DNA of 64,000 nucleotides from Candidatus Nitronereus thalassa (GTDB lineage Bacteria; Nitrospirota; Nitrospiria; Nitrospirales; UBA8639). The notes below the pieces were generated by a model, which searched no databases, was not told where the DNA came from, and saw only the letters and a list, made by a program, of their open reading frames with translations. Position numbers and translations under genes: made by a program. The first letter of the stretch is position 1. Each line of letters opens with the position of its first letter. The stretch covers positions 372,001 to 436,000 of the forward strand of contig NZ_JAQOUE010000002.1 in NCBI RefSeq assembly GCF_032191465.1. Direction: 5' to 3'. Shown here piece by piece: positions 3,253 through 46,593 of the stretch.

Positions 3253-4884
3253 TCAATTCGGCTTTTCCAACCCCATCTTTTGCATGCGGGAAACTAAGGT
3301 TGTAGGTTTGATGCGGAGTAAGGTTGCGGCGCCGTCATCGCCGTAGACTTTCCAGTTGACCTTCTCCAGCGCCTTTCTCAAATTCTCGCGTTCGAAATCA
3401 CGCATTTCGTCTTCGGTCATGATTTCAGCCTGACCGGGGCTGACGGATTTTTTCCTTCCTAGTAATGAAGAACGTACCGAATCCGACACAGTAGGCAAGC
3501 CAAACTGGAGGGTGCTGCAGCGCGAGGTAATCACGGCCCGTTCGATCACGTTTTGCAACTCACGAATATTCCCAGGCCAATCGTATTTTTGCAGTTCGAT
3601 GACATGCGCCTGCGTCAGTCTTGGTGGATTGGAACAATTCATTTTCTTCGAGGTAAGTTCTAAAAAGTTAGTAGCCAAAAGAGGAATGTCTTCTTTGCGT
3701 TCGCGTAAAGGGGCGACTTCCAATGGAAACACATTCAATCGATAATACAGATCCTGTCGAAATCGACCGGCTTCAACTTCTTTTTTGAGATCACGATTTG
3801 TCGCGGCGACGACGCGCACATCAGCTTTCCTCGTTCGTTCATCGCCAACGCGTTCGTATTCGTTTTCTTGAAGGACACGCAACAGTTTACTTTGCAACTC
3901 AAGTGGAATCTCGCCCACTTCATCCAAAAACAACGTGCCCCCATCCGCCACTTCAAACCGCCCAGCACGATCTCTAAGCGCTCCGGTGAACGAGCCTTTG
4001 ACATGGCCGAAGAATTCGCTTTCATAAAGCTCCCGCGGAATCGAGGCACAGTTGACTTTCACGAGGGGCTTGTCCTTGCGCAGGCTACGTCCATGAATTT
4101 CTCGGGCCACGAGTTCTTTCCCCGTTCCGGATTCTCCGAGAATCAACACGCTGGCATCGGTAGGCGCGACGAGTTCGATTTGACGCAGCACGGCACGCAA
4201 CGCCGGGCTTTGCCCCACGATGTCGCCAAACGCCTGCGCCTCTAACACCTCTTCCCGCAAAAACGTATTTTCTAATTTGAGTTGTTCTTGCAACCGCTCG
4301 ATTTCATCGAACGCATTCGCATTGACGATAGCCACGGCCACATGATCGGCAATCATTCGCAACCACCCCGGTGCATCTTCCGCGATGGGCGCACGTGTAA
4401 AAACTCCCAACACCCCCAAGATCTCTCCTTGATACATAATGGGTTGGCCGTGAAACCCATGAATGCTTTCTTGCTTGGCCCAATCCTGCCTGGCGATCCA
4501 GGTCGTGTCATCGTCCACTTCATTGATAATGACCGGTTCTCCCGTTTTTCCAATGCGGCCAACCTTACACGCGCCAATGGGAAACCGACGAAAATTCCCA
4601 TTCAATCGATTCCATTCTTCATTGGGATTCACCACCGAGTTGCCGGCACTCGCCACTAAGTGCAAACAGGTCGTTTGATCGGCACAGTCTTCCCGCATGC
4701 GACAGGTTCCACAAATATCACCCGGTCGCTTGAGCCAAACACGCACCAGGGCCACATCGTCCCGCGACGCCATGCGCGTCACGATGAGTTGTAAGAGATC
4801 GTCAAGCGATCGCTGCTGCGCAATATCCAACACCAAACATTTAAAGGATGCGAATTCCGTCGGACAGATTTTCTCGGGTTTCAT
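3253..4884 (-). CDS. GAF-domain sigma-54-dependent activator
   Basis: 543 aa enhancer-binding protein. A GAF sensor spans residues about 20-190, an AAA+ domain about 215-450 and a Fis-like helix-turn-helix the last 50. Visible AAA+ motifs are Walker A GESGTGKE, the sigma-54 contact loop GSFTGA (usual form GAFTGA), and Walker [14 protein letters not shown]. The GAF domain contains the cysteine cluster [16 protein letters not shown] (C-x2-C-x5-C-x5-C), a likely metal or redox site. No receiver domain is present, so it should respond to a ligand or redox signal rather than a kinase. I chose ATG 4884 because GGAGAAAAGAAT precedes it. It is divergent from the 5109-6770 operon, which has a sigma-54 promoter, so it very likely activates that operon. 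Target assignment is inference from position. Confidence 0.9.
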
Positions 4885-36333: not shown

Positions 36334-36442
36334 CTGCCCAGCGGAACTTCCAAGACACATATCAACCCCTTGTCGATGCATGGATTCTATACGATAATGC
36401 AGGAGATGTTCCAAAGTATGTAGATTCAGGAGGAAAGAGTTA

Positions 36443-36700
36443 ATGGCAAATAAACGGATCGGGATTAAAGACCCAGACCTTGCCAAAGTTGGAGTAGCGC
36501 TCAAACGCGCCGCGCTAAAAGCCAGGGAAATAGGATTAGCCACAAATACCCCAGTCTACGTCTTTCGAGACGGGAAAATTGTTGATGTTGTGGCAGAACA
36601 AAAAGCCAAACACCTACCTCATAAAACCAGCGGGAAAAGTTCACGGGCCCAAAAGGCAGGCCTTGGAAGAAAAACCTCAAAGATTACAAACAAGAGATAA
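36443..36700 (+). CDS. small basic conserved protein
   Basis: 85 aa. N-terminal half forms a helix-turn-strand (VALKRAALKAREIGLATNTPVYVFRDGKIVD cut to key parts VALKRAALKAREIG and TPVYVFRDGKIVD); the tail is Lys/Arg-rich. Proteins with the A-A-x-x-A-x-x-x-G-x-x-T-x-x-P-V-Y-V-x-R-D-G pattern are widespread hypotheticals, sometimes beside toxin genes, but no toxin is next to this one. Strong AGGAGG precedes ATG. Confidence 0.8.
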   Translation: MANKRIGIKDPDLAKVGVALKRAALKAREIGLATNTPVYVFRDGKIVDVVAEQKAKHLPHKTSGKSSRAQKAGLGRKTSKITNKR

Positions 36701-36798
36701 GAGGAATAATCTTTCCTCGTGTTACCAATTCCGACATTCTTAAGTGCAACCCAAAAACACCTCAATCTTTCAGCACAACGAAGAACGGGTGCAAAGCG

Positions 36799-37482
36799 AT
36801 GAGAAGAAACCAGACTATTTCCCCAAAAACAGCGCCGACATTCAGACCGCTTCCAATTAGTCTCACCAAGTCCTCAACCCTTCTGTGTCTCGCCTTTACT
36901 CTCCTTCTAGGAACCTCAGGCTGTACAGACCTTAAACGTCTGGCCTATGAAGGGTTTGACCGTGATGAGTGGCAACAACCAGAGCAAGTCATAAAAGCCC
37001 TGAAAATCGAGCCAGGAGACCAAGTCGCAGACCTTGGGTCGGGAAGCGGGTATTTCACCTTTCGATTGGCGGATGCGGTAGGACCCAACGGAAAAGTCTA
37101 CGCCGTAGATATCGATGCGGAGATGAACGCCGCCCTCGCCGAACAGGTACAGGAAAAAGGATACCAGAATATCGAAGTCGTGCTCGCGCAACCGCACGAC
37201 CCTGGATTGCCCGACAACAGCATCGACCTCATCTTTTCAACCAACACCTATCATCATCTCGAACAACGAGTGGCGTACCTGGCCAACCTCAAACAAGACC
37301 TTCAACCCAATGGACGAATCGCCATCATCGACTTCAATGGCGAGGGATGGTTCCAACACTTGTTCGGCCACTACACCTCCAGCGAAAGTATCCAGCGCGA
37401 ATTACAAGAAACAGGCTACACCCTCGAAACAAAACTAGACTTTCTCCCCAAACAGGTCTTCCTCATCTTTGTAAGAAACTAG
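36799..37482 (+). CDS. lipoprotein with SAM-dependent methyltransferase domain
   Basis: 227 aa. An N-terminal basic/hydrophobic leader ends in lipobox LLLGTSGCTDL (Cys near residue 41), then a complete class I methyltransferase domain: VADLGSGSGYFTFRLADAVG (motif I), VYAVDIDAEM, DLIFSTNTYHHL, NGRIAIIDFNGEGW. SAM is cytosolic, so an exported methyltransferase is puzzling; the leader may instead act as an uncleaved anchor. ATG 36799 has GGGTGCAAAGC upstream, weak. Part of no obvious operon. Confidence 0.8.
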   Translation: MRRNQTISPKTAPTFRPLPISLTKSSTLLCLAFTLLLGTSGCTDLKRLAYEGFDRDEWQQPEQVIKALKIEPGDQVADLGSGSGYFTFRLADAVGPNGKVYAVDIDAEMNAALAEQVQEKGYQNIEVVLAQPHDPGLPDNSIDLIFSTNTYHHLEQRVAYLANLKQDLQPNGRIAIIDFNGEGWFQHLFGHYTSSESIQRELQETGYTLETKLDFLPKQVFLIFVRN

Positions 37483-37662
37483 TAATAGCATCCCGAACCA
37501 TAAAAACATCGCCCTCCCCTCTGTAATTCCCGACATTGGTAATCGGGAATCCATCCTCCATGTAATAACCTTTTATTTTTCCCTCCATTGAAGTACATTC
37601 GGGCGGCGAAAAAAAACACCTCGTTATGAATCAAGAAAATAGACCTTTGCAGGAGATCCACA

Positions 37663-39027
37663 TTGAGAGATAAGAAAAAAGTGTGGCGAAACCGAACAAA
37701 AGCGGTGACCGTATCTACCGTCTTGTTATTGATGATATGTGCCACCGGCCTGGCAGCCGATCGAACTGCTGTGGACACAAGCCGGTCGTCGGTCCAGACC
37801 ATCATGAAGTTCCCATCGACGGTGCGAAAGATTCCTCGGGTAACGGCACCAATACTGAGATCCGTGCAACTATGGGATATCGTCAATGGCGCAGCGAATT
37901 CCAGCATCAGCTACCGACGGCAGGTGCAATTGGGAATCAGCTATTCTGGCACACGCCCGACCCATTACCGAGTCAGCGAAAACCGTCAATTCGAGCGTGC
38001 CTCATGGCAGACATTTTATCCTCGTGGACGATACCGCTATACGTTTCAGCGAAATAGTGATGGGCGGAAAACCGTGTACGTGCAGTTGCGCTACGGCGAC
38101 GGAACGAAATACCTCAGCCAAGTGCAACAGGCATCGATCGTCTATCGCAAACCGCCGACCATCAGTAATTTTCAGATTGAGAACGGCGCAGCCAGCGCTT
38201 CCAAGCGGCAGGTCCTGCTCACGTGGAACGTCTCCGGCATTGCGACGGACTACCGTGTCAGTGAGTCGTCCGATATGGCGGGGGCATCGTGGAAAACTGG
38301 CGGTGCACCTCCGAGCGGTGGTCTGATCTTCGATTTAGCCGAAGGAGCCTCAGGGCAACGAAGGATATATCTTCAGGTAAAGAGAGAACAGAGTGACCCC
38401 GTATCTGCCAACGACAGTATTAATCTCACTGTTGGCATTTGCCCGATCGGGCATCGAGGGTTGGAATGCAGCGGTGCCGGGACCTGTTCAAACGCGGGAC
38501 AATGTACCTGCAACGCGGACATCAGCGGGCCAGCCTGCGAAACTATTTGCCAGCGGTGCTACGGAGCAGCCGGAAACAATTGTGGCGTCGCCGATGGCAT
38601 GAATTTCCCCGCGAACCTCGGCGTGTGCATGAGCACGCCCCAGGGACCAAGCTGCCAGATCAATGCAGGAAGCTGGGCACACGACGAATGCTGCGTGCGC
38701 TACCGTTTTGGCGGACCGAATTCTCAACAAGGCTCCTGCACAGTAGCCGGCCTCGGCCCTCCACCGTATGTCTGCCAGTTAGAACTGGCCAAAGCCGTGG
38801 CCCAGCTACCAAACCCCCTGCTCACCTGGACACGCACGGATGTGAACTTCAGCAAGAGTTCTTGTACGGACGGAATCGAAATGCCGGTGACCCATGCCGA
38901 TATGTGTAATCCTTCGGGCGGCACCCTACTCTGCAGTGATGTGCAATATTGCTGTAGTGGGAGCGGCCAGGCATCGGCCATTCAGGCACCAGCAGCAACC
39001 GGCGGGATATTGTGTGTCTGTGATTAA
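37663..39027 (+). CDS. secreted cysteine-rich protein with EGF-like segment
   Basis: 454 aa from TTG 37663, which follows GGAGATCCACA; a basic/hydrophobic signal peptide (VSTVLLLMICATGLAA) is cleaved after LAA. Residues about 60-260 hold two beta-sandwich repeats with similar V-S-E-S/N strings (THYRVSENRQFERASW, TDYRVSESSDMAGASW). An EGF-like block follows (GLECSGAGTCSNAGQCTCN), then about 180 residues with many Cys, likely disulfide-bonded outside the cell. The last 74 codons are duplicated at 39908-40129. Function unknown; adhesion or matrix role is a guess. Confidence 0.75.
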   Translation: MRDKKKVWRNRTKAVTVSTVLLLMICATGLAADRTAVDTSRSSVQTIMKFPSTVRKIPRVTAPILRSVQLWDIVNGAANSSISYRRQVQLGISYSGTRPTHYRVSENRQFERASWQTFYPRGRYRYTFQRNSDGRKTVYVQLRYGDGTKYLSQVQQASIVYRKPPTISNFQIENGAASASKRQVLLTWNVSGIATDYRVSESSDMAGASWKTGGAPPSGGLIFDLAEGASGQRRIYLQVKREQSDPVSANDSINLTVGICPIGHRGLECSGAGTCSNAGQCTCNADISGPACETICQRCYGAAGNNCGVADGMNFPANLGVCMSTPQGPSCQINAGSWAHDECCVRYRFGGPNSQQGSCTVAGLGPPPYVCQLELAKAVAQLPNPLLTWTRTDVNFSKSSCTDGIEMPVTHADMCNPSGGTLLCSDVQYCCSGSGQASAIQAPAATGGILCVCD

Positions 39028-39239
39028 GCCCAGCTAGGGCCCTACAACCAGCAGATTATAACCCAAGAGCTGCCAAGTATTGGTGATGTGCCAATATTCA
39101 CAACCCAGAATCCATCTTGGCCGTTTGCAAAAAGACAAGTTCTATATTGATGAGGAATTACCCCCAAACATGGTATAAAGACCTGCCATATACCAAATTT
39201 AAAAGGTGGGAAGAGATTCAAGGGTAATAAGGACAGAAA

Positions 39240-39578
39240 ATGAGTAGGGAGTTTGTGGACTATTTGAGAGATATTATAGACGCTATGGGAAAGGCTCAAC
39301 AATTTGTCAGGAATCTCTCTTATTTAGAATTCAAAGCTGACGACAAAACGGTCTTTGCCGTCGTCAGAGCCTTGGAGATTGTTGGGGAAGCAACCAAAAA
39401 TATTCCCGATGATATTCGCAAGAACTACCCCGAGATCCCCTGGAAAGATATGGCGGGCATGAGAGATGTCCTGATTCATGATTATTTTGGCGCTGATGTA
39501 GAAACCGTATGGTTAACGGTTACAGAAAAAATCCCGCAGGTAAAACCGTTGATAGAAAAAATGCTAGAGAAATTATGA
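39240..39578 (+). CDS. hepT: HepT-family ribonuclease toxin
   Basis: 112 aa HEPN protein (DUF86). Catalytic R-x4-H-x-Y is seen as RDVLIHDYF near residue 78; ALEIVGEATKNIPDDIR and YPEIPWKDMAGMR are typical flanks. HepT cuts or blocks RNA and is silenced by AMPylation or oligoAMPylation of its Tyr by the cognate MntA. Overlaps the mntA start by 4 bp (ATGA). Sits between the two copies of the 3' end of the cysteine-rich gene. Confidence 0.92.
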   Translation: MSREFVDYLRDIIDAMGKAQQFVRNLSYLEFKADDKTVFAVVRALEIVGEATKNIPDDIRKNYPEIPWKDMAGMRDVLIHDYFGADVETVWLTVTEKIPQVKPLIEKMLEKL

Positions 39579-39868
39579 TCACCTTAGAAACGATAAAGAC
39601 AACGCTGCAAGCTCACAAAGAAGAGCTCAGCCAAAAATATGGTGTAAAGCAAATCGGGGTGTTTGGTTCTTGTGTGAAGAACGAACAGCTTGAGACGAGT
39701 GATGTTGACCTCCTGGTTGAATTTGATAAAGCCATCGATTTGTTCATCTTTGTTAATCTCAAAAACTATCTATCGGACTTGCTGAACGCCAACGTTGATC
39801 TCGTGATGAAAAAAGCCTTAAAGCCGAAAATTGGCCAACGCATACTACAAGAGGTTGTGGAAATTTAA
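39575..39868 (+). CDS. mntA: MntA-family nucleotidyltransferase antitoxin
   Basis: 97 aa minimal nucleotidyltransferase. G-S-x10-D-x-D motif intact in GVFGSCVKNEQLETSDVDLL, with further Asp in NVDLVMKKALKP. It modifies the HepT Tyr to neutralise it. Toxin first, antitoxin second, 4-bp overlap, is the standard order. The stop TAA (39866) is in the same frame as the downstream 3'-end copy. Confidence 0.92.
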   Translation: MITLETIKTTLQAHKEELSQKYGVKQIGVFGSCVKNEQLETSDVDLLVEFDKAIDLFIFVNLKNYLSDLLNANVDLVMKKALKPKIGQRILQEVVEI

Positions 39869-39907
39869 TGGGGATACCCAACGAATGGATCAGCCGTTCC
39901 TGGATAC

Positions 39908-40129
39908 CTACCAAACCCCCTGCTGACCTGGACGCGCACGGATGTGAACTTTAACAAGAGTTCCTGCACGGACGGAATCGAAATGCCGGTGACCCATGCC
40001 GATATGTGTAATCCTTCGGGCGGCACCCTACTCTGCAGTGATGTGCAATATTGCTGTAGTGGGAGCGGCCAGGCATCGGCAATTCAAGCCCCAGCCGCAA
40101 CTGGCGGGATATTGTGTATCTGTGACTAG
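39908..40129 (+). pseudogene. duplicated 3' end of the cysteine-rich secreted protein gene
   Basis: 222 bp matching 38806-39027 without indels and with about 14 differences (about 94% identical), ending in its own in-frame stop (TAG against TAA). It lacks the first five sixths of the gene and has no ribosome site, so it is a remnant. Similar bases continue just past both stops. Confidence 0.85.
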
Positions 40130-40189
40130 GGCTAGTCAGGGCCTTCCATCGAGACCAGCATCGTTACACAGTCCTTTCAGACTGGAGCC

Positions 40190-40819
40190 CTAGGCCTCAG
40201 ATTTCCTGGGATAATGATAGTCCAGACAAAAGGCGCACAATTCCTGACGAATATTGGCAGGAAGCTCTCTCACCCAGGTAGGAATCCAATCCCACCGATT
40301 TTTCTCTTGTAAATTTTTCACTTTGCGGCAGTGAGAACATTGGTGAATAAGTCCATCGCTATCGGTATAAACCGAGGCATTCCCCTCGCGTGCCACCTCA
40401 GTAACTGGGTGCGGCATTTCCTGCACCAGACTATTCACGATAAGAATTCCTTGATTCACGCCCACCGGATAGAGGGTCATGTTGAACATCCGGTACCGAT
40501 GAGCACTGGAACATTGATACGCGTGCTGCTTGGGATAACCCTGACTCCTCGGATCATTAAACGTGGAAAGAAAAAACCCCGTATAAAACTCCTTCAAATC
40601 AGAAGTCACCGCCTCCATCACATTTCTTCCCAATTTCCACTCCTCAGAAATGCTCGGTTCGCCGCCGTTATCTTGGGCGAAGGCAAACCACGCCGGATTG
40701 AAATACGCTAAAGAAAAATCTTTCCATAACCCATAGACAGCCGAAGAATGCATTTCGATATTCACTTCATCGAAGCTGGCGAGAAGCTTTTGAAATGCCG
40801 GGTCAATCCGCGCCTTCAT
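40190..40819 (-). CDS. PAS-like protein with C-terminal cysteine pairs
   Basis: 209 aa. The first 150 residues look like a PAS-type sensor (LWKDFSLAYFNPAWFAFAQD, MTLYPVGVNQGILIVNSLV). The tail has two C-x2-C pairs in QCSHCRKVKN and LCAFCLDYHYP, with WDWIPTWV between, a pattern seen at the ends of bacterial sensor proteins. No kinase or output domain, so it may be a stand-alone sensor or adaptor. Overlaps nothing; convergent with the duplicated remnant. Confidence 0.7.
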   Translation of the reverse strand: MKARIDPAFQKLLASFDEVNIEMHSSAVYGLWKDFSLAYFNPAWFAFAQDNGGEPSISEEWKLGRNVMEAVTSDLKEFYTGFFLSTFNDPRSQGYPKQHAYQCSSAHRYRMFNMTLYPVGVNQGILIVNSLVQEMPHPVTEVAREGNASVYTDSDGLIHQCSHCRKVKNLQEKNRWDWIPTWVRELPANIRQELCAFCLDYHYPRKSEA

Positions 40820-41348
40820 GTTCTACACACCATGATCATTTCCGTCTGGCAAGCCATCCCGTGAACTTTCAACCTATTCCCTTCCACCTCCAAAAAACAA
40901 CCACCAAGCAACGCGGCCTTTTCTTCTATTTTTAACGAGTAGGAGAATGGATAAAGTGTCAAACCTTTTCTACCTCAAGGGCATACGCGCATGGCCAGGC
41001 TAGTTACCGAAATCACCTGCCCATTCCTTGTACTTGCGTCGCCACATACTTCTAAGAAGCCAATCTCCTCGTTCCCATCGACAGCGTCGCCGACAAGAGC
41101 AACACGCCCACTTCTAAATCGGTGGTCGTTACTGTCCAACTCTATTTTAGTACCCCCTGCCATTCCTCAACGACAAACAACTTTTTCAGTATTCTCTTTC
41201 ATTTTCGCAAACCAATTAGGTACCATTTACCGATGACAATTGGCCCATTTTTTTTAAGGCCTTCCGCACTCCAATAAAGAGGGATTTTTTCTCATCTTAA
41301 AAAAATGTGGCATTCAAGGCCTGCCCCCCCAACCAAATGGAGGATCAC
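40820..41348. other. intergenic region before the DUF4062 gene
   Basis: AT-rich, no supportable gene. A 62-codon reading on the minus strand (40975-41163) has a protein-like look but its start is poor. The promoter of the DUF4062 gene should lie here. Confidence 0.4.
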
Positions 41349-42923
41349 ATGGAAATACATTCTCGAACAAACGACAGAAAATATAAAATATTTATTAGCT
41401 CGTCCTTTGAAGATTTAAAGGATGCACGAATCCAGCTAATGAAAAGAACTTTAAAGCTCGGCCATTTTCCAGGAGGAATGGAATTATTTTATCCAGGAGA
41501 GACTAGAAACTTGGAGGTAATTGAAAGGGAAATAAAATCTTGTGACATTTTTGTAATTCTCATTGGGGCAAGATTGGGGATGCCTATTACTGACGATGAT
41601 TATCCTGAAATTGATCACGTTTATTACACAATGGAAGAGTACGAAATAGCATGTAAATATAATAAGCCCGTGATACCTTTTCTGCTATACGAAGAGGAAT
41701 TTAATAAGGCCATTGAAGAAATCACAGATAGTTCTAAAAAGCTAGGCAGTTCTTCGCACATTTCTAACCAGATAGAAACGTTGAAGAATTTCAGAAACAC
41801 TGTGGTGCAAGGGCCACAGGGCAAGAGAATCGCAGGGTTTTTTTCATATAACGACACATCACATTTGTGTGAAGTTTACTCTGGCGCAATTAGCGCTACA
41901 ATTAATGAGTACTTTGATTCAGGCCAAAAAGGTGGTTGGGTAAACGGAGCAATATATGATGATCTCAAGGCCCAAATTGCACTAGGAAGATCAGTTAGCA
42001 ACAATATTTTCTTTAAAAGATTTGCCGAAAGGTTGAGCACCTTTGGAACCTTGTCGGGTAGGACTCAAATTGATTCGGAGTTAAAAACTAGCATTGCCGA
42101 ATTCTTCTGGCTAAATTACCTAACAATCATAGAAGAAAAAGGCATTAATAAAATATTTTTTGAGTCAGGCTCTTCTATAGCTTATGCCTCGAGAAAGTTT
42201 ATCGAATATGTTTATGAAGAGAGACAATCCTATCACGATTGGCTCCACGAAAAACTTCAAATCAGAACAAACAACTTTTTAACTTTTCTAGATTTACTTC
42301 TTATTGATTCGAGTTGGCAACCTTTGGATGTCCGCCTCCAACCGAATGGCCCCTTCTCTTCTGACTATGGTGCGTCATATGGAATGATCAAAAATGCTAA
42401 GGTTAGGTCGGCAACTAAACACAACCGTGAAGAGAAAGGGCTTCATAAAGACGCCAATGAAGCCATATTTAAAATGACTGAGGAGTTAAAAATTGATTTT
42501 GAAAGATCAGGAATGATATTGATGACAGCCTCCGGTTTATATTTGGAAAAGGAATCAAGATTTTATGGCCCTCATGTTGGCAGCTACCATAACATGTTAT
42601 TGAAACGCAGCCTTCTTTCCATGCCTTGCCCGAAAGTTATTTTTCTTGATCAAAAAAAATGGGGACTAGAGTTTGATTCTGATAACTGTTATGCCATTTG
42701 TGACAAAACCTGCGGGGATGATTTAACTTGGGAATCTCTAAAAACTAAGACACCACTAGCAGTGGCGTTAGCAGCTTTTGAAAAGGACCAACAGGATAAC
42801 CTAGCCAAATCTCTTTTTTCTGAAGGATTCATTCATCAGGAAAAAGGAACTGTCAAAGCTGGGGCTAAGGGAAGGTGGCCAATAATAGCAGGAAACGAAT
42901 CATTTTGGAAATTTTTTAGTTAA
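41349..42923 (+). CDS. DUF4062 protein with DeoR-type sensor-like C-terminal domain
   Basis: 524 aa. Residues about 10-105 are DUF4062, a TIR-like alpha/beta domain of conflict and STAND proteins: FISSSFEDLKDARIQLMKR, IEREIKSCDIFVILIGARLG, YTMEEYEIACKYNKPVIPFL. The C-terminal half, about 265-455, follows the order of a DeoR C-terminal sensor (NagB/RpiA-like phosphosugar fold): INKIFFESGSSIAYASRKF, IRTNNFL, NGPFSSDYGASYG, GMILMTASGLYL, KRSLLSMPCPKVIFLDQKKW and CYAICDK. No DNA-binding domain. Start ATG 41349 has GGAGG 5 nt upstream, better than in-frame ATGs at 41307 and 41340. Strongly AT-rich, so probably acquired. Fusion call is by eye. Confidence 0.78.
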   Translation: MEIHSRTNDRKYKIFISSSFEDLKDARIQLMKRTLKLGHFPGGMELFYPGETRNLEVIEREIKSCDIFVILIGARLGMPITDDDYPEIDHVYYTMEEYEIACKYNKPVIPFLLYEEEFNKAIEEITDSSKKLGSSSHISNQIETLKNFRNTVVQGPQGKRIAGFFSYNDTSHLCEVYSGAISATINEYFDSGQKGGWVNGAIYDDLKAQIALGRSVSNNIFFKRFAERLSTFGTLSGRTQIDSELKTSIAEFFWLNYLTIIEEKGINKIFFESGSSIAYASRKFIEYVYEERQSYHDWLHEKLQIRTNNFLTFLDLLLIDSSWQPLDVRLQPNGPFSSDYGASYGMIKNAKVRSATKHNREEKGLHKDANEAIFKMTEELKIDFERSGMILMTASGLYLEKESRFYGPHVGSYHNMLLKRSLLSMPCPKVIFLDQKKWGLEFDSDNCYAICDKTCGDDLTWESLKTKTPLAVALAAFEKDQQDNLAKSLFSEGFIHQEKGTVKAGAKGRWPIIAGNESFWKFFS

Positions 42924-43266
42924 CCTAAGCACTTTAATATATTCAAAAAAATTCGACATTCCAGAATTAAAGACGAGAAGAGATGGGGGTCAGCAACTGT
43001 TGAATGAGAAGAACTGGGTTCAGGACTTGAATCGCGCAGCCTTTTCTTTCCACAATCTACCTATTCAAACCGCATAAAAAATTAAATTAGTTTCCAAATA
43101 GGCAATCTCCAACCTTTTCTCCACCTCTCCCACACCAAGAGTGCAATTTCTGATTTGAATGATTTGCAGTGGAATAAACCTCTTTCACGGTTCTTTATTC
43201 GATATAACTAATGTGAGGATATTGCAGTCCAACAAATGATATTATGTTGGCTTTATTGCTTTTGTC
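42924..43266. other. intergenic region
   Basis: AT-rich, no gene or strong structure seen. It separates the DUF4062 gene from the next AT-rich gene on the same strand, so they may have separate promoters. Confidence 0.4.
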
Positions 43267-44421
43267 ATGGGAAGGATCATGGATCTTGGGAGTCCATCAC
43301 AATTTGATTTATCTAACCCCCAATGGATAGCAGTTTGCCTAGCCCTTATTGGCATAATTGGTACTGCTGCTTATCACAGTATTCCATGGATTCGAAAACG
43401 AACGGTCTACAAGTACTGCAATTTCAATCTACAGATTTTAGATAAATTTCCTCCCAATCATCACGAATTATCGGGTTTAGTCTCATTTCCACTCAACGTG
43501 ACGGATTTCTATGTTGTGATCAAATCTAAAGACAGATTTTCTCTTCAGAGAGTTAATTTACGATTCCTCGACAAGAACCAGACCTTCAAGTCGCATCCAT
43601 ACGGCAATGCAGATTTGAAGGTTATAAAAATAACGTCCCTGAGATATTGGGATGATCGCTATGTTGATATTGAAAGCTGCTCAGATCAAGTAGGTGGTTT
43701 TGGAGCAGCATTTAACAGAACTCTCAAAAAGGAAGACGGGCTATATTTCCGACTGGGCGTCCATATTCAGTCGCCATGGGTTGGCATAATATGTTTTCGG
43801 GCCATAGATAACGATGGCTTTGAAAGTTTTGCTAGAAATAAGTTGGTAGCTTTTGGGCTAGCATATGAAGATGCGTGGAAGGTTTGGTGTGGTGAAAAGA
43901 ATATAAATCATTGTAATATCGCTCCAATCTCGATCACAGATTTAGAGACGGAAAGTCAACCCTCTATTGAGCTTTTACCTAAGAGCAGCCAAAGTCCTGA
44001 TTTGCGATTATCCGTACATAACCACGGACCTACAGCAGCTTTTTCCGCGAAATGCGAAATCTTGAGCACCAAAAATGATCCGAATCCACCAAGGAAGGGC
44101 CTTTTTCAGCTTCGATGGATTCTTCAAAATGATAGAGAAATGATGATTAGGCAGGGAGATAAGGAAGATTTGCTAATTGCAAGAATAAATGTTGACCATG
44201 GTTCTCGGCTTGGGCAAATGATCTTTTATGAATTACTTTCAAATGGTGATGCCGAATTTACTTCATGTCGTTGGAATTTGCCTGAATTGGAACTCCCTGA
44301 ATATGAACTCGAGATTCGTATTTATAATGATGGTTTTGATAAACCCTTTCTTAAAACATTTATTGTACGGCCACATCTACATTGGGGGCCACTAGAAATG
44401 ATTGAAATAAAGGTCTCTTGA
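43267..44421 (+). CDS. membrane-anchored protein of unknown function
   Basis: 384 aa. One transmembrane helix near the N-terminus (WIAVCLALIGIIGTAAYHSI), then a soluble region with two beta-rich parts (VSFPLNVTDFYVVIKSKDRF; LRLSVHNHGPTAAFSAKCEI, the latter like a CARDB/Ig-type strand pattern). No enzyme motif. GGAAGG lies just before the second ATG (43279), which may be the true start. AT-rich and next to the DUF4062 gene on the same strand; could be its membrane partner (inference). Confidence 0.65.
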   Translation: MGRIMDLGSPSQFDLSNPQWIAVCLALIGIIGTAAYHSIPWIRKRTVYKYCNFNLQILDKFPPNHHELSGLVSFPLNVTDFYVVIKSKDRFSLQRVNLRFLDKNQTFKSHPYGNADLKVIKITSLRYWDDRYVDIESCSDQVGGFGAAFNRTLKKEDGLYFRLGVHIQSPWVGIICFRAIDNDGFESFARNKLVAFGLAYEDAWKVWCGEKNINHCNIAPISITDLETESQPSIELLPKSSQSPDLRLSVHNHGPTAAFSAKCEILSTKNDPNPPRKGLFQLRWILQNDREMMIRQGDKEDLLIARINVDHGSRLGQMIFYELLSNGDAEFTSCRWNLPELELPEYELEIRIYNDGFDKPFLKTFIVRPHLHWGPLEMIEIKVS

Positions 44422-44730
44422 TTGAGTACTAAAAATTGATTTCGTATGCGATTTATTACGCAGTCAGGTATTAAAATTACTTTGAAAAAGAAAAAGAAGA
44501 AGATCGGGATCAGAATCGCAAAGAAAATCTGATACAGAAAGAAGTACAGGGCATATTCAAAAACAGGGATTTTTTTGTTAGCGCACTGAAGCCCCACGCC
44601 GAAAACCGGATGGCATAGGCGAATAAATGAGGGAACACGTTGCGAAGAGCGCTATATTTGTGCGCGCCCGAGAGGCTGTGAGCGCCCGGCTGACAACGTA
44701 ATTACGGAAATGGACAGGTTTAGAGGTGAA
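44422..44730. other. intergenic region between convergent genes
   Basis: First half is a purine-rich run (44480-44560), second half returns to GC-rich sequence with a repeated GCGCCCG string (44668-44700). The composition switch marks the edge of the AT-rich block. No gene. Confidence 0.4.
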
Positions 44731-46593
44731 CTACAGGCTCTCTCGATGCTCCCTCACCAACCCAACAATTCTGTTCATCACCCGTTGGGACCGTCGTTGC
44801 GCTACTGACTTACGATTTTTGATTTCTTTTTTCTTGTCTGGATCAGGCCGCATTTTTTGATACAGAATAAAATCACGCAATACCGCTTGAAGTTTATCAA
44901 ACGATAGTCGCTTTCGTTCCCTCAGAATTTTTTCTGTCACCCAAATAATGGACTCTCCGGTGATGCGATCATACTGGTTAATGATGGATGCCCGCATCCC
45001 GAGTTCGAGTAACATTTGTCTTTCCGTTTTTTTGAAATGTTTCGCCGCTTGATGCACTAATGCCCTATATAGTTTTTGAAATTCTCGTATTTTTCTGATT
45101 TTCGTCTCATCTAACGTTCTGTCCCGTTTGTTGGCATAGCTTGACGCCATCGTTCCCATAAAGACGTCAGGGGTCATGATCGCATCCGTTTCAGACAGAT
45201 GAGGGGGTAGGGCTCGCAGAATATCCCTCATACAATAAATGGCATCCCAGGTGAGCCCGTCTGCAACCTTGTACACGCCTCTTTTCGATTTCGCCTTTTC
45301 GAAATAACTAAACACGCCTTTAAATTTCTTCATTAGATCCTGGTGTTCTGTGAACAGGTATTCTCGATGGGAATCCTTAAATCCGATTTTGTATAACAGA
45401 TGACGACACAAATGGTGTTCAAATTCCTGATCAAACACCTTCAACAATGTATGGCGAGTAAAATGTTGAATAGGCTTCTTCTGACCTCTGACGAGAAAAT
45501 CACTCATTTGAATAAACGTTTGCACGATATATCGGGCCTTGAGTTTTTGTTCGGGAATGGTCGTGGACCAACGATCCGTGTCATCAAATCGGTACTCGTG
45601 GTGATACAGGCCAAACTGCCTCACTGACCCATAGTCTATGATTCCACCGTCCATCAAAATATTGTCTCCGTCCCAATCTAACCAGACGAAGAGATAGTCT
45701 GATTCGAACGTGGCCGTGGTCTGCGCAAACTGGTTGGCCATGTACTCTGCAAGATATTCATAGCCTTTCTTTCGAGAACTCTGCCTGGGCCAATCACCGT
45801 TCAACACCTGTCGATCAATGTAATAGTCCACCGCGGCACGTAGCCCTTCAAGATCCCCCTGCTTGAGGTATCGAAACAGATGTGACGGTCGCAACAAGTT
45901 CGTTCCCGCTCGAACATTAATCGCGTTTCCCTTTGGATATTCAATCATCGCCAAGGTTCTCTCCGTCGCGATACCATTTCTATGAAAAATTTCACTCAAC
46001 AGGGCTGCCGAAATTCCATCCTCGAGGTCTGCATACCCACATCCATAAGATGCGAAGGGGTCGCCGGTTTTAAAAAACTTCTTTTCAATGGCCGTGGCTG
46101 GGCTGAGGCACGTCGCCCCTGTTCCGCAGCTTGATACGTCCCACGTGGTCCCACGATAGGAAATCTGGCCGTTCCAGATGCTTCGCCCATCTCCGGACGT
46201 GCGTCCGGTTTTGTCCGGGTGTTGCAATTGCAGATACCGGGTCGCCATGTACTTATGAGGTTTTATATGCTTTTTGGGAATGAGTGTTTGATGGAAGACA
46301 TCATATTCATTGATGATTTGAATGCCGAACGTATCAAGCACCGTTTGAGCCAGCTTGCGATTCATTTTCTGGGGGTGATCCCCAGCAATCAAACCCATCT
46401 CCTTCGCAAGGTCGTAGTTGAAATAGGCAAGCTTGCCCCCTTTCCGCAGGCGCACGGAGTATTCCACATAGCCCCCTGGGACGGCTTTCTGAAAGTCATG
46501 GTTTCCATTGATCAGACGAAACCTGTCATACCGCCGAGGATCTTGCTTCCCCTGACGCCCAGGAGCCCGCTTTGATTTTGGTAAAGTCTTCAC
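44731..46593 (-). CDS. SelO/YdiU-like pseudokinase family protein (divergent)
   Basis: 620 aa. Residues about 35-330 follow the SelO (UPF0061) order: PGGYVEYSVRLRKGGKLAYF in place of the usual G-G-H-Q-F-G loop, GDGRSIWNGQISYRG, then SAALLSEIFHRNGIATERTL, and the kinase-like core DWDGDNILMDGGIIDYGSV, keeping Asn and Asp of D-N...I-D-Y-G. SelO proteins AMPylate targets in redox stress. Here several loops are shortened or changed and about 200 C-terminal residues are extra and basic, so activity is likely but not certain. Monocistronic. Confidence 0.78.
   Translation of the reverse strand: MKTLPKSKRAPGRQGKQDPRRYDRFRLINGNHDFQKAVPGGYVEYSVRLRKGGKLAYFNYDLAKEMGLIAGDHPQKMNRKLAQTVLDTFGIQIINEYDVFHQTLIPKKHIKPHKYMATRYLQLQHPDKTGRTSGDGRSIWNGQISYRGTTWDVSSCGTGATCLSPATAIEKKFFKTGDPFASYGCGYADLEDGISAALLSEIFHRNGIATERTLAMIEYPKGNAINVRAGTNLLRPSHLFRYLKQGDLEGLRAAVDYYIDRQVLNGDWPRQSSRKKGYEYLAEYMANQFAQTTATFESDYLFVWLDWDGDNILMDGGIIDYGSVRQFGLYHHEYRFDDTDRWSTTIPEQKLKARYIVQTFIQMSDFLVRGQKKPIQHFTRHTLLKVFDQEFEHHLCRHLLYKIGFKDSHREYLFTEHQDLMKKFKGVFSYFEKAKSKRGVYKVADGLTWDAIYCMRDILRALPPHLSETDAIMTPDVFMGTMASSYANKRDRTLDETKIRKIREFQKLYRALVHQAAKHFKKTERQMLLELGMRASIINQYDRITGESIIWVTEKILRERKRLSFDKLQAVLRDFILYQKMRPDPDKKKEIKNRKSVAQRRSQRVMNRIVGLVREHRESL

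What the first reader, a model, noticed from the sequence alone, without database searches (positions are those of the whole stretch)
41349..42923. DUF4062 fused to a DeoR-type sensor-like domain: candidate new effector-sensor architecture
The N-terminal DUF4062 signatures are clear. The C-terminal half follows the order of a DeoR C-terminal domain: E-S-G-S-S-I-A loop near residue 271, T-N-N near 306, a glycine-rich segment, an A-S-G-L strand near 394, then F-L-D-Q-K-K-W (433) and C-Y-A-I-C-D (448). DeoR sensors normally sit behind a winged helix and bind sugar phosphates. Here a TIR-like conflict domain takes that place. A small-molecule-triggered effector is a reasonable reading. The gene is AT-rich and close to a HepT/MntA module.
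Basis: partly seen in the sequence, partly recalled or inferred. Interest (0 to 1): 0.72.

Follow-up and report, generated by a model that had tools for sequence, protein, structure and literature searches.

The report
TIR-like NADase with DeoR-type sensor
A bacterium of the Nitrospirota carries a single gene that joins a predicted NAD-destroying "self-destruct" domain (DUF4062, the Swarozyc anti-phage domain) to a sensor domain of the kind that normally lets DeoR gene regulators detect sugar phosphates; the fusion recurs in at least six bacterial phyla and suggests a suicide enzyme that may be switched on by a small metabolite.

Summary
Window 41349-42923(+) is an intact 524-aa gene. Residues 9-190 are a DUF4062 TIR-like domain (PF13271, E=6.6e-18) whose Glu97 aligns with the position of KpSwz's catalytic Glu97. 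Residues ~237-524 are a divergent DeoR-type sensor (NagB/RpiA/DeoRC, or ISOCOT, fold). Pfam does not detect it, but profile comparison with real DeoR proteins does (score 46.2; best of 200 shuffles 20.4). So does a confident model (pTM 0.89), whose solved-structure matches are E. coli DeoR (TM 0.69 by target), RpiA and eIF2B. The winged helix is absent and DUF4062 takes its place. RpiA's catalytic acids are missing, while the SGS, TN and Lys437 loop residues are kept. I found ten further homologues in at least six phyla. Every complete one has the same fusion, and no partner gene is conserved. The closest lies in a defence island; another adjoins a type I restriction subunit. DUF4062 is already known as the NADase of the Swarozyc anti-phage system (preprint, May 2026), whose sensor is a different fold that binds phage portal protein. 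This is therefore a new variant of a known kind. A small-molecule trigger is the best reading but is unproven; a protein trigger is the main rival.

The parts
41339..41343 (+). Shine-Dalgarno-like GGAGG, 5 nt before the ATG
   Evidence: read from sequence
41349..42923 (+). DUF4062-DeoRC fusion gene, 524 aa plus stop
   Evidence: same architecture in the homologous loci with an intact 5' end
41385..41651 (+). DUF4062 (TIR-like) core by Pfam, residues 13-101; the modelled domain runs to about residue 190
   Evidence: PF13271 E=6.6e-18; profile of the family N-terminus hits KpSwz TIR/DUF4062 10wc E=4.7e-28 and TEP1 11gz E=1.5e-6; Foldseek TIR hits
41637..41639 (+). Glu97, predicted catalytic residue (YTxxEYxxA)
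   Evidence: invariant in 9 of 9 family members with an N-terminus; aligns with the Ala at chain position 84 of 10wc, which is residue 97 if the chain begins at residue 14 (my numbering) and so the E97A mutation of KpSwz
41919..42056 (+). linker, residues 191-236, mostly low-confidence helices; no winged helix seen
   Evidence: pLDDT 44-67 for residues 191-240; no HTH family hit
42057..42671 (+). DeoRC-like (NagB/RpiA/ISOCOT fold) core, residues 237-441
   Evidence: hhalign to DeoR proteins (controls); model pTM 0.89; Foldseek DeoR 7l6l, RpiA, eIF2B
42162..42173 (+). E272-S-G-S loop after the first strand, equivalent to DeoR AGST / RpiA GSGST phosphate loop
   Evidence: invariant in A5; aligned to DeoR and to RpiA 1xtz 'SGSTVVYVAE'
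42267..42275 (+). T307-N-N loop after the second strand, equivalent to DeoR TN
   Evidence: invariant, aligned to DeoR TN
42528..42536 (+). A394-S-G loop, at the position of the RpiA DGAD catalytic loop; Asp absent
42567..42608 (+). G407-P-H-V-G-S-Y-x-N...K419-R420 signature, the diagnostic motif of this family
   Evidence: the pattern scan found 11 stretches in 84,980 species genomes, 10 of them encoding this family
42657..42659 (+). Lys437 (DQKKW), equivalent to the invariant Lys of DeoR SKF and RpiA EAKW
   Evidence: near-invariant; aligned to DeoR K; RpiA equivalence through the DeoR-RpiA alignment
42672..42920 (+). C-terminal extension, residues 442-524, with further strands and helices
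   Evidence: pLDDT mostly above 84

Best explanation
This is a stand-alone, single-gene effector. The N-terminal DUF4062 domain is a TIR-like NADase held inactive. The C-terminal DeoR-type domain senses a phosphorylated small molecule (a sugar phosphate or a nucleotide-derived phosphate) and supplies the oligomer scaffold. Ligand binding in the conserved SGS/TNN/Lys437 pocket shifts the sensor's oligomer interface and lets the TIR-like heads pair. NAD+ is then hydrolysed and the infected or poisoned cell stops growing, most likely as abortive anti-phage defence. Shown here: both folds, the order of domains, conservation of the predicted catalytic Glu and of the pocket loops, loss of RpiA-type catalytic acids, absence of a DNA-binding domain, recurrence across phyla and absence of a conserved partner gene. 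Inferred: NADase activity in this protein, the nature of the ligand, activation by oligomer change, and the defence role.
For: DUF4062 half: Pfam, KpSwz and TEP1 profile hits, TIR folds by Foldseek, Glu97 conserved 9/9; DUF4062 NADase and anti-phage activity is experimental in KpSwz (PMC13174449). Sensor half: hhalign to DeoR proteins with shuffle controls; model pLDDT 86, pTM 0.89; matches to RpiA, E. coli DeoR 7l6l (TM 0.69 by target, 5.2 A) and eIF2B, the same three families that a true DeoR protein gave in a published Dali search (PMC10991401). Of 40 near-invariant residues in this half, 19 lie in loops just after strand ends, which cover 20% of the domain; no random draw of 20,000 reached that. 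That is where this fold binds its ligand. Homologous effector domains bind sugar phosphates, and their ligand responds at the dimer interface (PMC11229326). Defence or mobile context: L061 and L062; the window copy lies in an AT-rich segment whose contents are not found beside the flanks in a congener. No shared partner gene among the loci compared.
Against: No ligand, NADase activity or phage protection was tested. The only studied bacterial relative, KpSwz, is triggered by a protein. The Glu of classical DeoR ligand sites (E-x-E-V-K) appears to be replaced by a near-invariant Asn415, so a classical ligand cannot be assumed. About half of the homologue loci sit among apparently housekeeping genes. 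Relative placement of the two domains is uncertain (full-length pTM 0.59).
Confidence: 0.52

Rival explanations
1. The DeoRC-like domain has been co-opted as a protein-recognition scaffold. It binds a phage structural or other foreign protein, much as the KpSwz accessory domain binds the phage portal, and no small molecule is involved.
For: KpSwz accessory domain is a HTH/winged fold, a DNA-binding type reused to bind the portal (PMC13174449). Large family-specific insertions and a C-terminal extension relative to DeoR could form a protein surface.
Against: The most conserved residues are the ligand-loop residues of the fold, not surface insertions. A protein-sensing surface under an arms race would be expected to vary, while the GPHVGSY motif is nearly fixed across phyla (but the scan pattern itself selected for it). 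The family's accessory domain shows no relationship to that of KpSwz (searches list no KpSwz hit).
Confidence: 0.28
2. The C-terminal domain is an enzyme of the RpiA/NagB kind that makes or removes a signal, for example by acting on ADP-ribose or a sugar phosphate, and works in series with the NADase.
For: RpiA is among the best structural matches. The phosphate loop and Lys437 are kept.
Against: The RpiA catalytic Asp (DGAD loop) and Glu (REK) positions carry Ala/Ser and Leu/Phe, as judged through the DeoR alignment. By sequence the domain groups with DeoR sensors, not RpiA: hhalign to RpiA is at chance level, 17.4 against a shuffle maximum of 20.4.
Confidence: 0.06
3. The protein is not a defence system but a metabolic-stress or growth-arrest switch that lowers NAD+ when a sugar phosphate accumulates.
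For: Several homologues sit among housekeeping genes. One truncated copy lies 58 bp upstream of FBP aldolase, KduI/IolB and ADP-dependent phosphofructokinase genes.
Against: Patchy distribution (2 of 270 genomes of its class), an accessory AT-rich position, defence-island context of the nearest homologue, and the known role of DUF4062.
Confidence: 0.12

Closest known systems
Swarozyc (KpSwz), DUF4062 TIR-like NADase anti-phage system (PMC13174449; PDB 10wc)
   Same: Same effector domain in the same N-terminal position, catalytic Glu at the aligned position, single gene, defence-island context for some homologues.
   Different: The accessory domain in KpSwz is a HTH/winged fold of about 160 residues that binds phage portal; here it is a DeoRC-like domain of about 290 residues with no detectable similarity to it.
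DeoR-family transcription regulators, C-terminal sensor PF00455 (E. coli DeoR, PDB 7l6l)
   Same: Same fold and the same order of motifs in the sensor half, with the output domain at the N-terminus.
   Different: No winged-helix DNA-binding domain; below Pfam detection; longer insertions; a family-specific GPHVGSY-N-KR motif in place of the E-x-E-V-K motif.
RpiA / NagB / eIF2B (ISOCOT superfamily)
   Same: Same fold, and the phosphate-loop motif SGST-VAYVA is shared with yeast RpiA.
   Different: Catalytic acids absent; fused to an effector domain.
Ligand-gated TIR effectors (TIR-STING and TIR-SAVED of CBASS, ThsA-type Thoeris effectors)
   Same: Works-like comparison only: a ligand-binding domain controls a NADase.
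   Different: No CD-NTase or TIR signal synthase is conserved next to the gene; the sensor is of the DeoR type, not STING, SAVED or SLOG.

Membership tests
DUF4062 (PF13271) | Profile match above the curated cut-off | tested here: met
   65.1 bits against cut-off 24.7
Swarozyc / DUF4062 TIR-like NADase | TIR-like fold with catalytic Glu at the KpSwz E97 position | tested here: met
   Foldseek TIR hits; alignment to KpSwz 10wc; Glu97 conserved 9/9
Swarozyc / DUF4062 TIR-like NADase | Portal-sensing HTH/winged accessory domain as in KpSwz | tested here: not met
   Accessory domain is DeoRC-like; its profile finds no KpSwz chain. Not filed as a Swarozyc of the KpSwz type.
Swarozyc / DUF4062 TIR-like NADase | NAD+ hydrolysis and phage protection | not testable with these tools
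   needs the bench
DeoR-type sensor domain (DeoRC) | Pfam PF00455 above its cut-off | tested here: not met
   1 of 10 members at E=0.12; none significant
DeoR-type sensor domain (DeoRC) | Homology to DeoR C-terminal domains by profile-profile comparison | tested here: met
   hhalign score 46.2, 83% probability, 200 shuffles at most 20.4
DeoR-type sensor domain (DeoRC) | NagB/RpiA/DeoRC fold | tested here: met
   Foldseek on a pTM 0.89 model: RpiA 3.3e-5, DeoR 5.4e-5, TM 0.69 by target
DeoR-family transcription regulator | N-terminal winged-helix DNA-binding domain | tested here: not met
   N-terminus is DUF4062; no HTH hit and no winged helix evident in the model
DeoR-family transcription regulator | Binds a phosphorylated sugar | not testable with these tools
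   pocket loops conserved, ligand unknown
RpiA/NagB isomerase | Catalytic Asp and Glu of the RpiA active site | tested here: not met
   equivalent positions carry Ala/Ser and Leu/Phe by alignment through DeoR; catalytic residues named from general knowledge of RpiA
CBASS / Thoeris ligand-gated TIR effector | Conserved neighbouring signal synthase | tested here: not met
   no neighbour gene shared among the loci compared

The most novel reading that the evidence does not exclude
A one-gene abortive-infection system that detects infection through a metabolite, such as deoxyribose- or ribose-5-phosphate or an ADP-ribose derivative released when a phage breaks down host nucleotides. It would use a DeoR-type sensor to gate a TIR-like NADase directly, with no signal synthase.
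Probability: 0.15. Interest if true: 0.85.

Novelty: new variant of a known kind. Interest (0 to 1): 0.62.

Why it matters
DUF4062 has just been shown to be a NADase in bacterial defence and in the human vault particle, but what its many accessory domains sense is open. Here is a widespread, compact version whose sensor belongs to a well understood ligand-binding fold with a conserved pocket. It offers a direct test of whether DUF4062 effectors can be switched on by a metabolite instead of a phage protein. It would also be, to my knowledge, the first DeoR-type sensor found to control a NADase instead of a DNA-binding domain; none of the papers searched describes it.

Tried and rejected
A single-sequence scan of genome contigs with the whole protein found no relative; the family surfaced only after a C-terminal search of the phylum and a GPHxGSYxNxxxKR pattern scan. 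The domain was not found in phage records, plasmid records or viral contigs, so there is no evidence of phage or plasmid carriage. HepT/MntA as a functional partner was rejected: no homologue of HepT, MntA or any other window neighbour appears in the ORFs of the homologue loci, and the pair lies inside its own 246-bp direct repeat. An RpiA-like enzyme was considered and rejected on missing catalytic residues and chance-level sequence similarity. Recruitment from a resident DeoR gene was considered: the window's genome has no PF00455 match at E <= 0.001, so the fusion was not made from a DeoR gene still present. The copy in L021/L068 seemed to link the sensor to a sugar-phosphate operon, but it begins at a contig end and lacks the ESGS segment, so it carries little weight. 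L024 is frameshifted inside the GPHVGSY motif; only its reading frame before that point was used in A4 and A5. PF06026 as a source of RpiA homologues gave one sequence only.

Full report
The gene. The window lies in a Nitrospirota genome: the nearest same-class homologue (G202, L025) is titled Nitrospirota, and the window is G000:C2:372001-436000. The ORF 41349-42923(+) is intact and has a GGAGG box. It is 38-40% GC against about 49-50% around it.

N-terminal half. Pfam gives DUF4062 at residues 13-101, E=6.6e-18. The only solved relative found by single sequence is KpSwz TIR/DUF4062 (10wc, E=2.2e-8). A profile of the family N-termini finds KpSwz at 4.7e-28 and human TEP1 (11gz) at 1.5e-6. Foldseek on the full-length model gives TIR domains. 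The conserved YTxxEYxxA glutamate, Glu97, is present in 9 of 9 members with an N-terminus. In the alignment with 10wc it faces an Ala at chain position 84. The published structure is of a construct KpSwz 15-C carrying E97A, so this Ala fits the mutated catalytic residue; the residue numbering is my inference. PMC13174449 (bioRxiv, May 2026) shows that DUF4062 hydrolyses NAD+, that KpSwz gives abortive anti-phage defence, and that its HTH/winged accessory domain binds the phage portal.

C-terminal half. Neither Pfam, NCBIfam nor PADLOC recognises it, and per-member Pfam scans reach DeoRC only once, at E=0.12. An alignment of ten family C-termini (A5) compared with nine bona fide DeoR-type proteins taken from the homologues' own genomes gives an end-to-end match in motif order, score 46.2, P 9.1e-6. 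The reversed profile scores 13.4 and 200 column-shuffled profiles at most 20.4. As a yardstick, DeoR against RpiA scores 43.2 with the same program, whereas A5 against RpiA scores 17.4, within chance. By sequence the domain is therefore DeoR-like, not RpiA-like. The AlphaFold2 model of this half has mean pLDDT 86 and pTM 0.89. Its Foldseek matches are RpiA (1xtz, 3.3e-5), E. coli DeoR (7l6l, 5.4e-5, TM 0.69 by target, 5.2 A) and, further down, eIF2B. A true DeoR-family protein, CsqR, gave the same three families in a published Dali search (PMC10991401). RpiA rmsd values near 15 A show that only part of those longer alignments superposes; the DeoR match is the cleaner one.

Pocket. The invariant or nearly invariant residues of the C-terminal half include E272-S-G-S, T307-N-N, P332, Y340-G-A, A394-S-G, G407-P-H-V-G-S-Y-x-N, K419-R420 and K437. 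Nineteen of 40 fall in the loops right after strand ends, which make up 20% of the domain; none of 20,000 random draws did as well. The GPHxGSYxNxxxKR residues were partly selected by the scan pattern, so their conservation is inflated; the other loops were not selected. These are the ligand loops of this fold. SGS and Lys437 match DeoR, and the SGST loop matches RpiA. The RpiA catalytic Asp and Glu are not conserved, and the Glu of the DeoR E-x-E-V-K motif faces Asn415, so the ligand need not be a classical DeoR inducer. Related effector domains bind sugar phosphates at a site next to the dimer interface (PMC11229326).

Family and distribution. A scan of 84,980 species genomes with the GPHxGSYxNxxxKR pattern found 11 stretches, 10 of them encoding this family. 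They come from Nitrospirota, Syntrophaceae, Opitutaceae, Chloroflexi (two), Planctomycetes (two), Acidobacteria (Angelobacter and Sulfopaludibacter) and one unnamed bacterium. Every copy with an intact 5' end carries DUF4062. Identities to the window protein run from 24 to 47%. The family is rare: 2 of 270 genomes of its class and 1 of 396 in the phylum of L028. It was not found in phage, plasmid or viral collections. The pattern scan gives a lower bound.

Neighbourhood. The nearest homologue (L022/L061, Syntrophaceae) lies among a type ISP restriction-modification enzyme, a helicase, a phage integrase, a TPR-CHAT protein and a caspase-like protein. L062 has a type I restriction R subunit directly upstream. 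L018 has a resolvase and a DUF3800 gene. Others (L063-L067) appear to lie among housekeeping genes (judged mostly by eye). No neighbouring gene is shared between loci, so the system appears to be a single gene. In the window, congener G001 matches up to 36333 on the left and from 44765 on the right, on different contigs. Everything in between, including this gene, is missing from those flanks.

Mechanism. The best reading is a ligand-gated NADase: an autoinhibited TIR-like head on a DeoR-type sensor and oligomer scaffold. The architecture and conservation are shown here; catalysis, ligand, activation and defence role are inferred. The main rival is protein-triggered activation, as in KpSwz.

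Novelty. DUF4062 as a NADase defence domain is already published, and its modular accessory domains were noted there in general terms without mention of NagB or DeoR. The DeoR-type sensor fusion was not found in the literature searched. I class it as a new variant of a known kind.

Noticed in passing
window 38806-39051 and 39908-40153: A 246-bp direct repeat (91% identical) flanks the HepT/MntA pair (39240-39868): the 3' end of the EGF-like secreted-protein gene 37663-39027 is duplicated on the far side of the module, which looks like an insertion with duplication of the target gene's end.
   Followed up: partly
window 36334-44764: Segment between two blocks conserved in congener G001; it holds HepT/MntA, the DUF4062-DeoRC gene and other genes, and may be a variable island. 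In G001 the two flanks are on different contigs, so an empty site was not seen.
   Followed up: partly
window 44731-46593 (-): 620-aa protein weakly related to SelO (protein adenylyltransferase pseudokinase, E=4.3e-7), far below the SelO equivalog cut-off; conserved in the congener at 86% DNA identity.
   Followed up: no
window 43267-44421 (+): 384-aa protein of no known family with a probable single membrane helix near its start, directly downstream of the finding; no homologue near the other family members.
   Followed up: partly
L068 241-1191 (same as L021): Copy truncated at its 5' end, 58 bp upstream of FBP aldolase class II, KduI/IolB and ADP-dependent phosphofructokinase genes, resembling an inositol or sugar-acid catabolic operon.
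   Followed up: partly
L003, L004: Relatives in the window's own family carry 331-335 aa KpSwz-like DUF4062 proteins, apparently ordinary Swarozyc candidates.
   Followed up: no
L024 around 4000-4050: The Anaerolineales copy is frameshifted within the GPHVGSY motif; its genome holds about a dozen DUF4062 matches.
   Followed up: no
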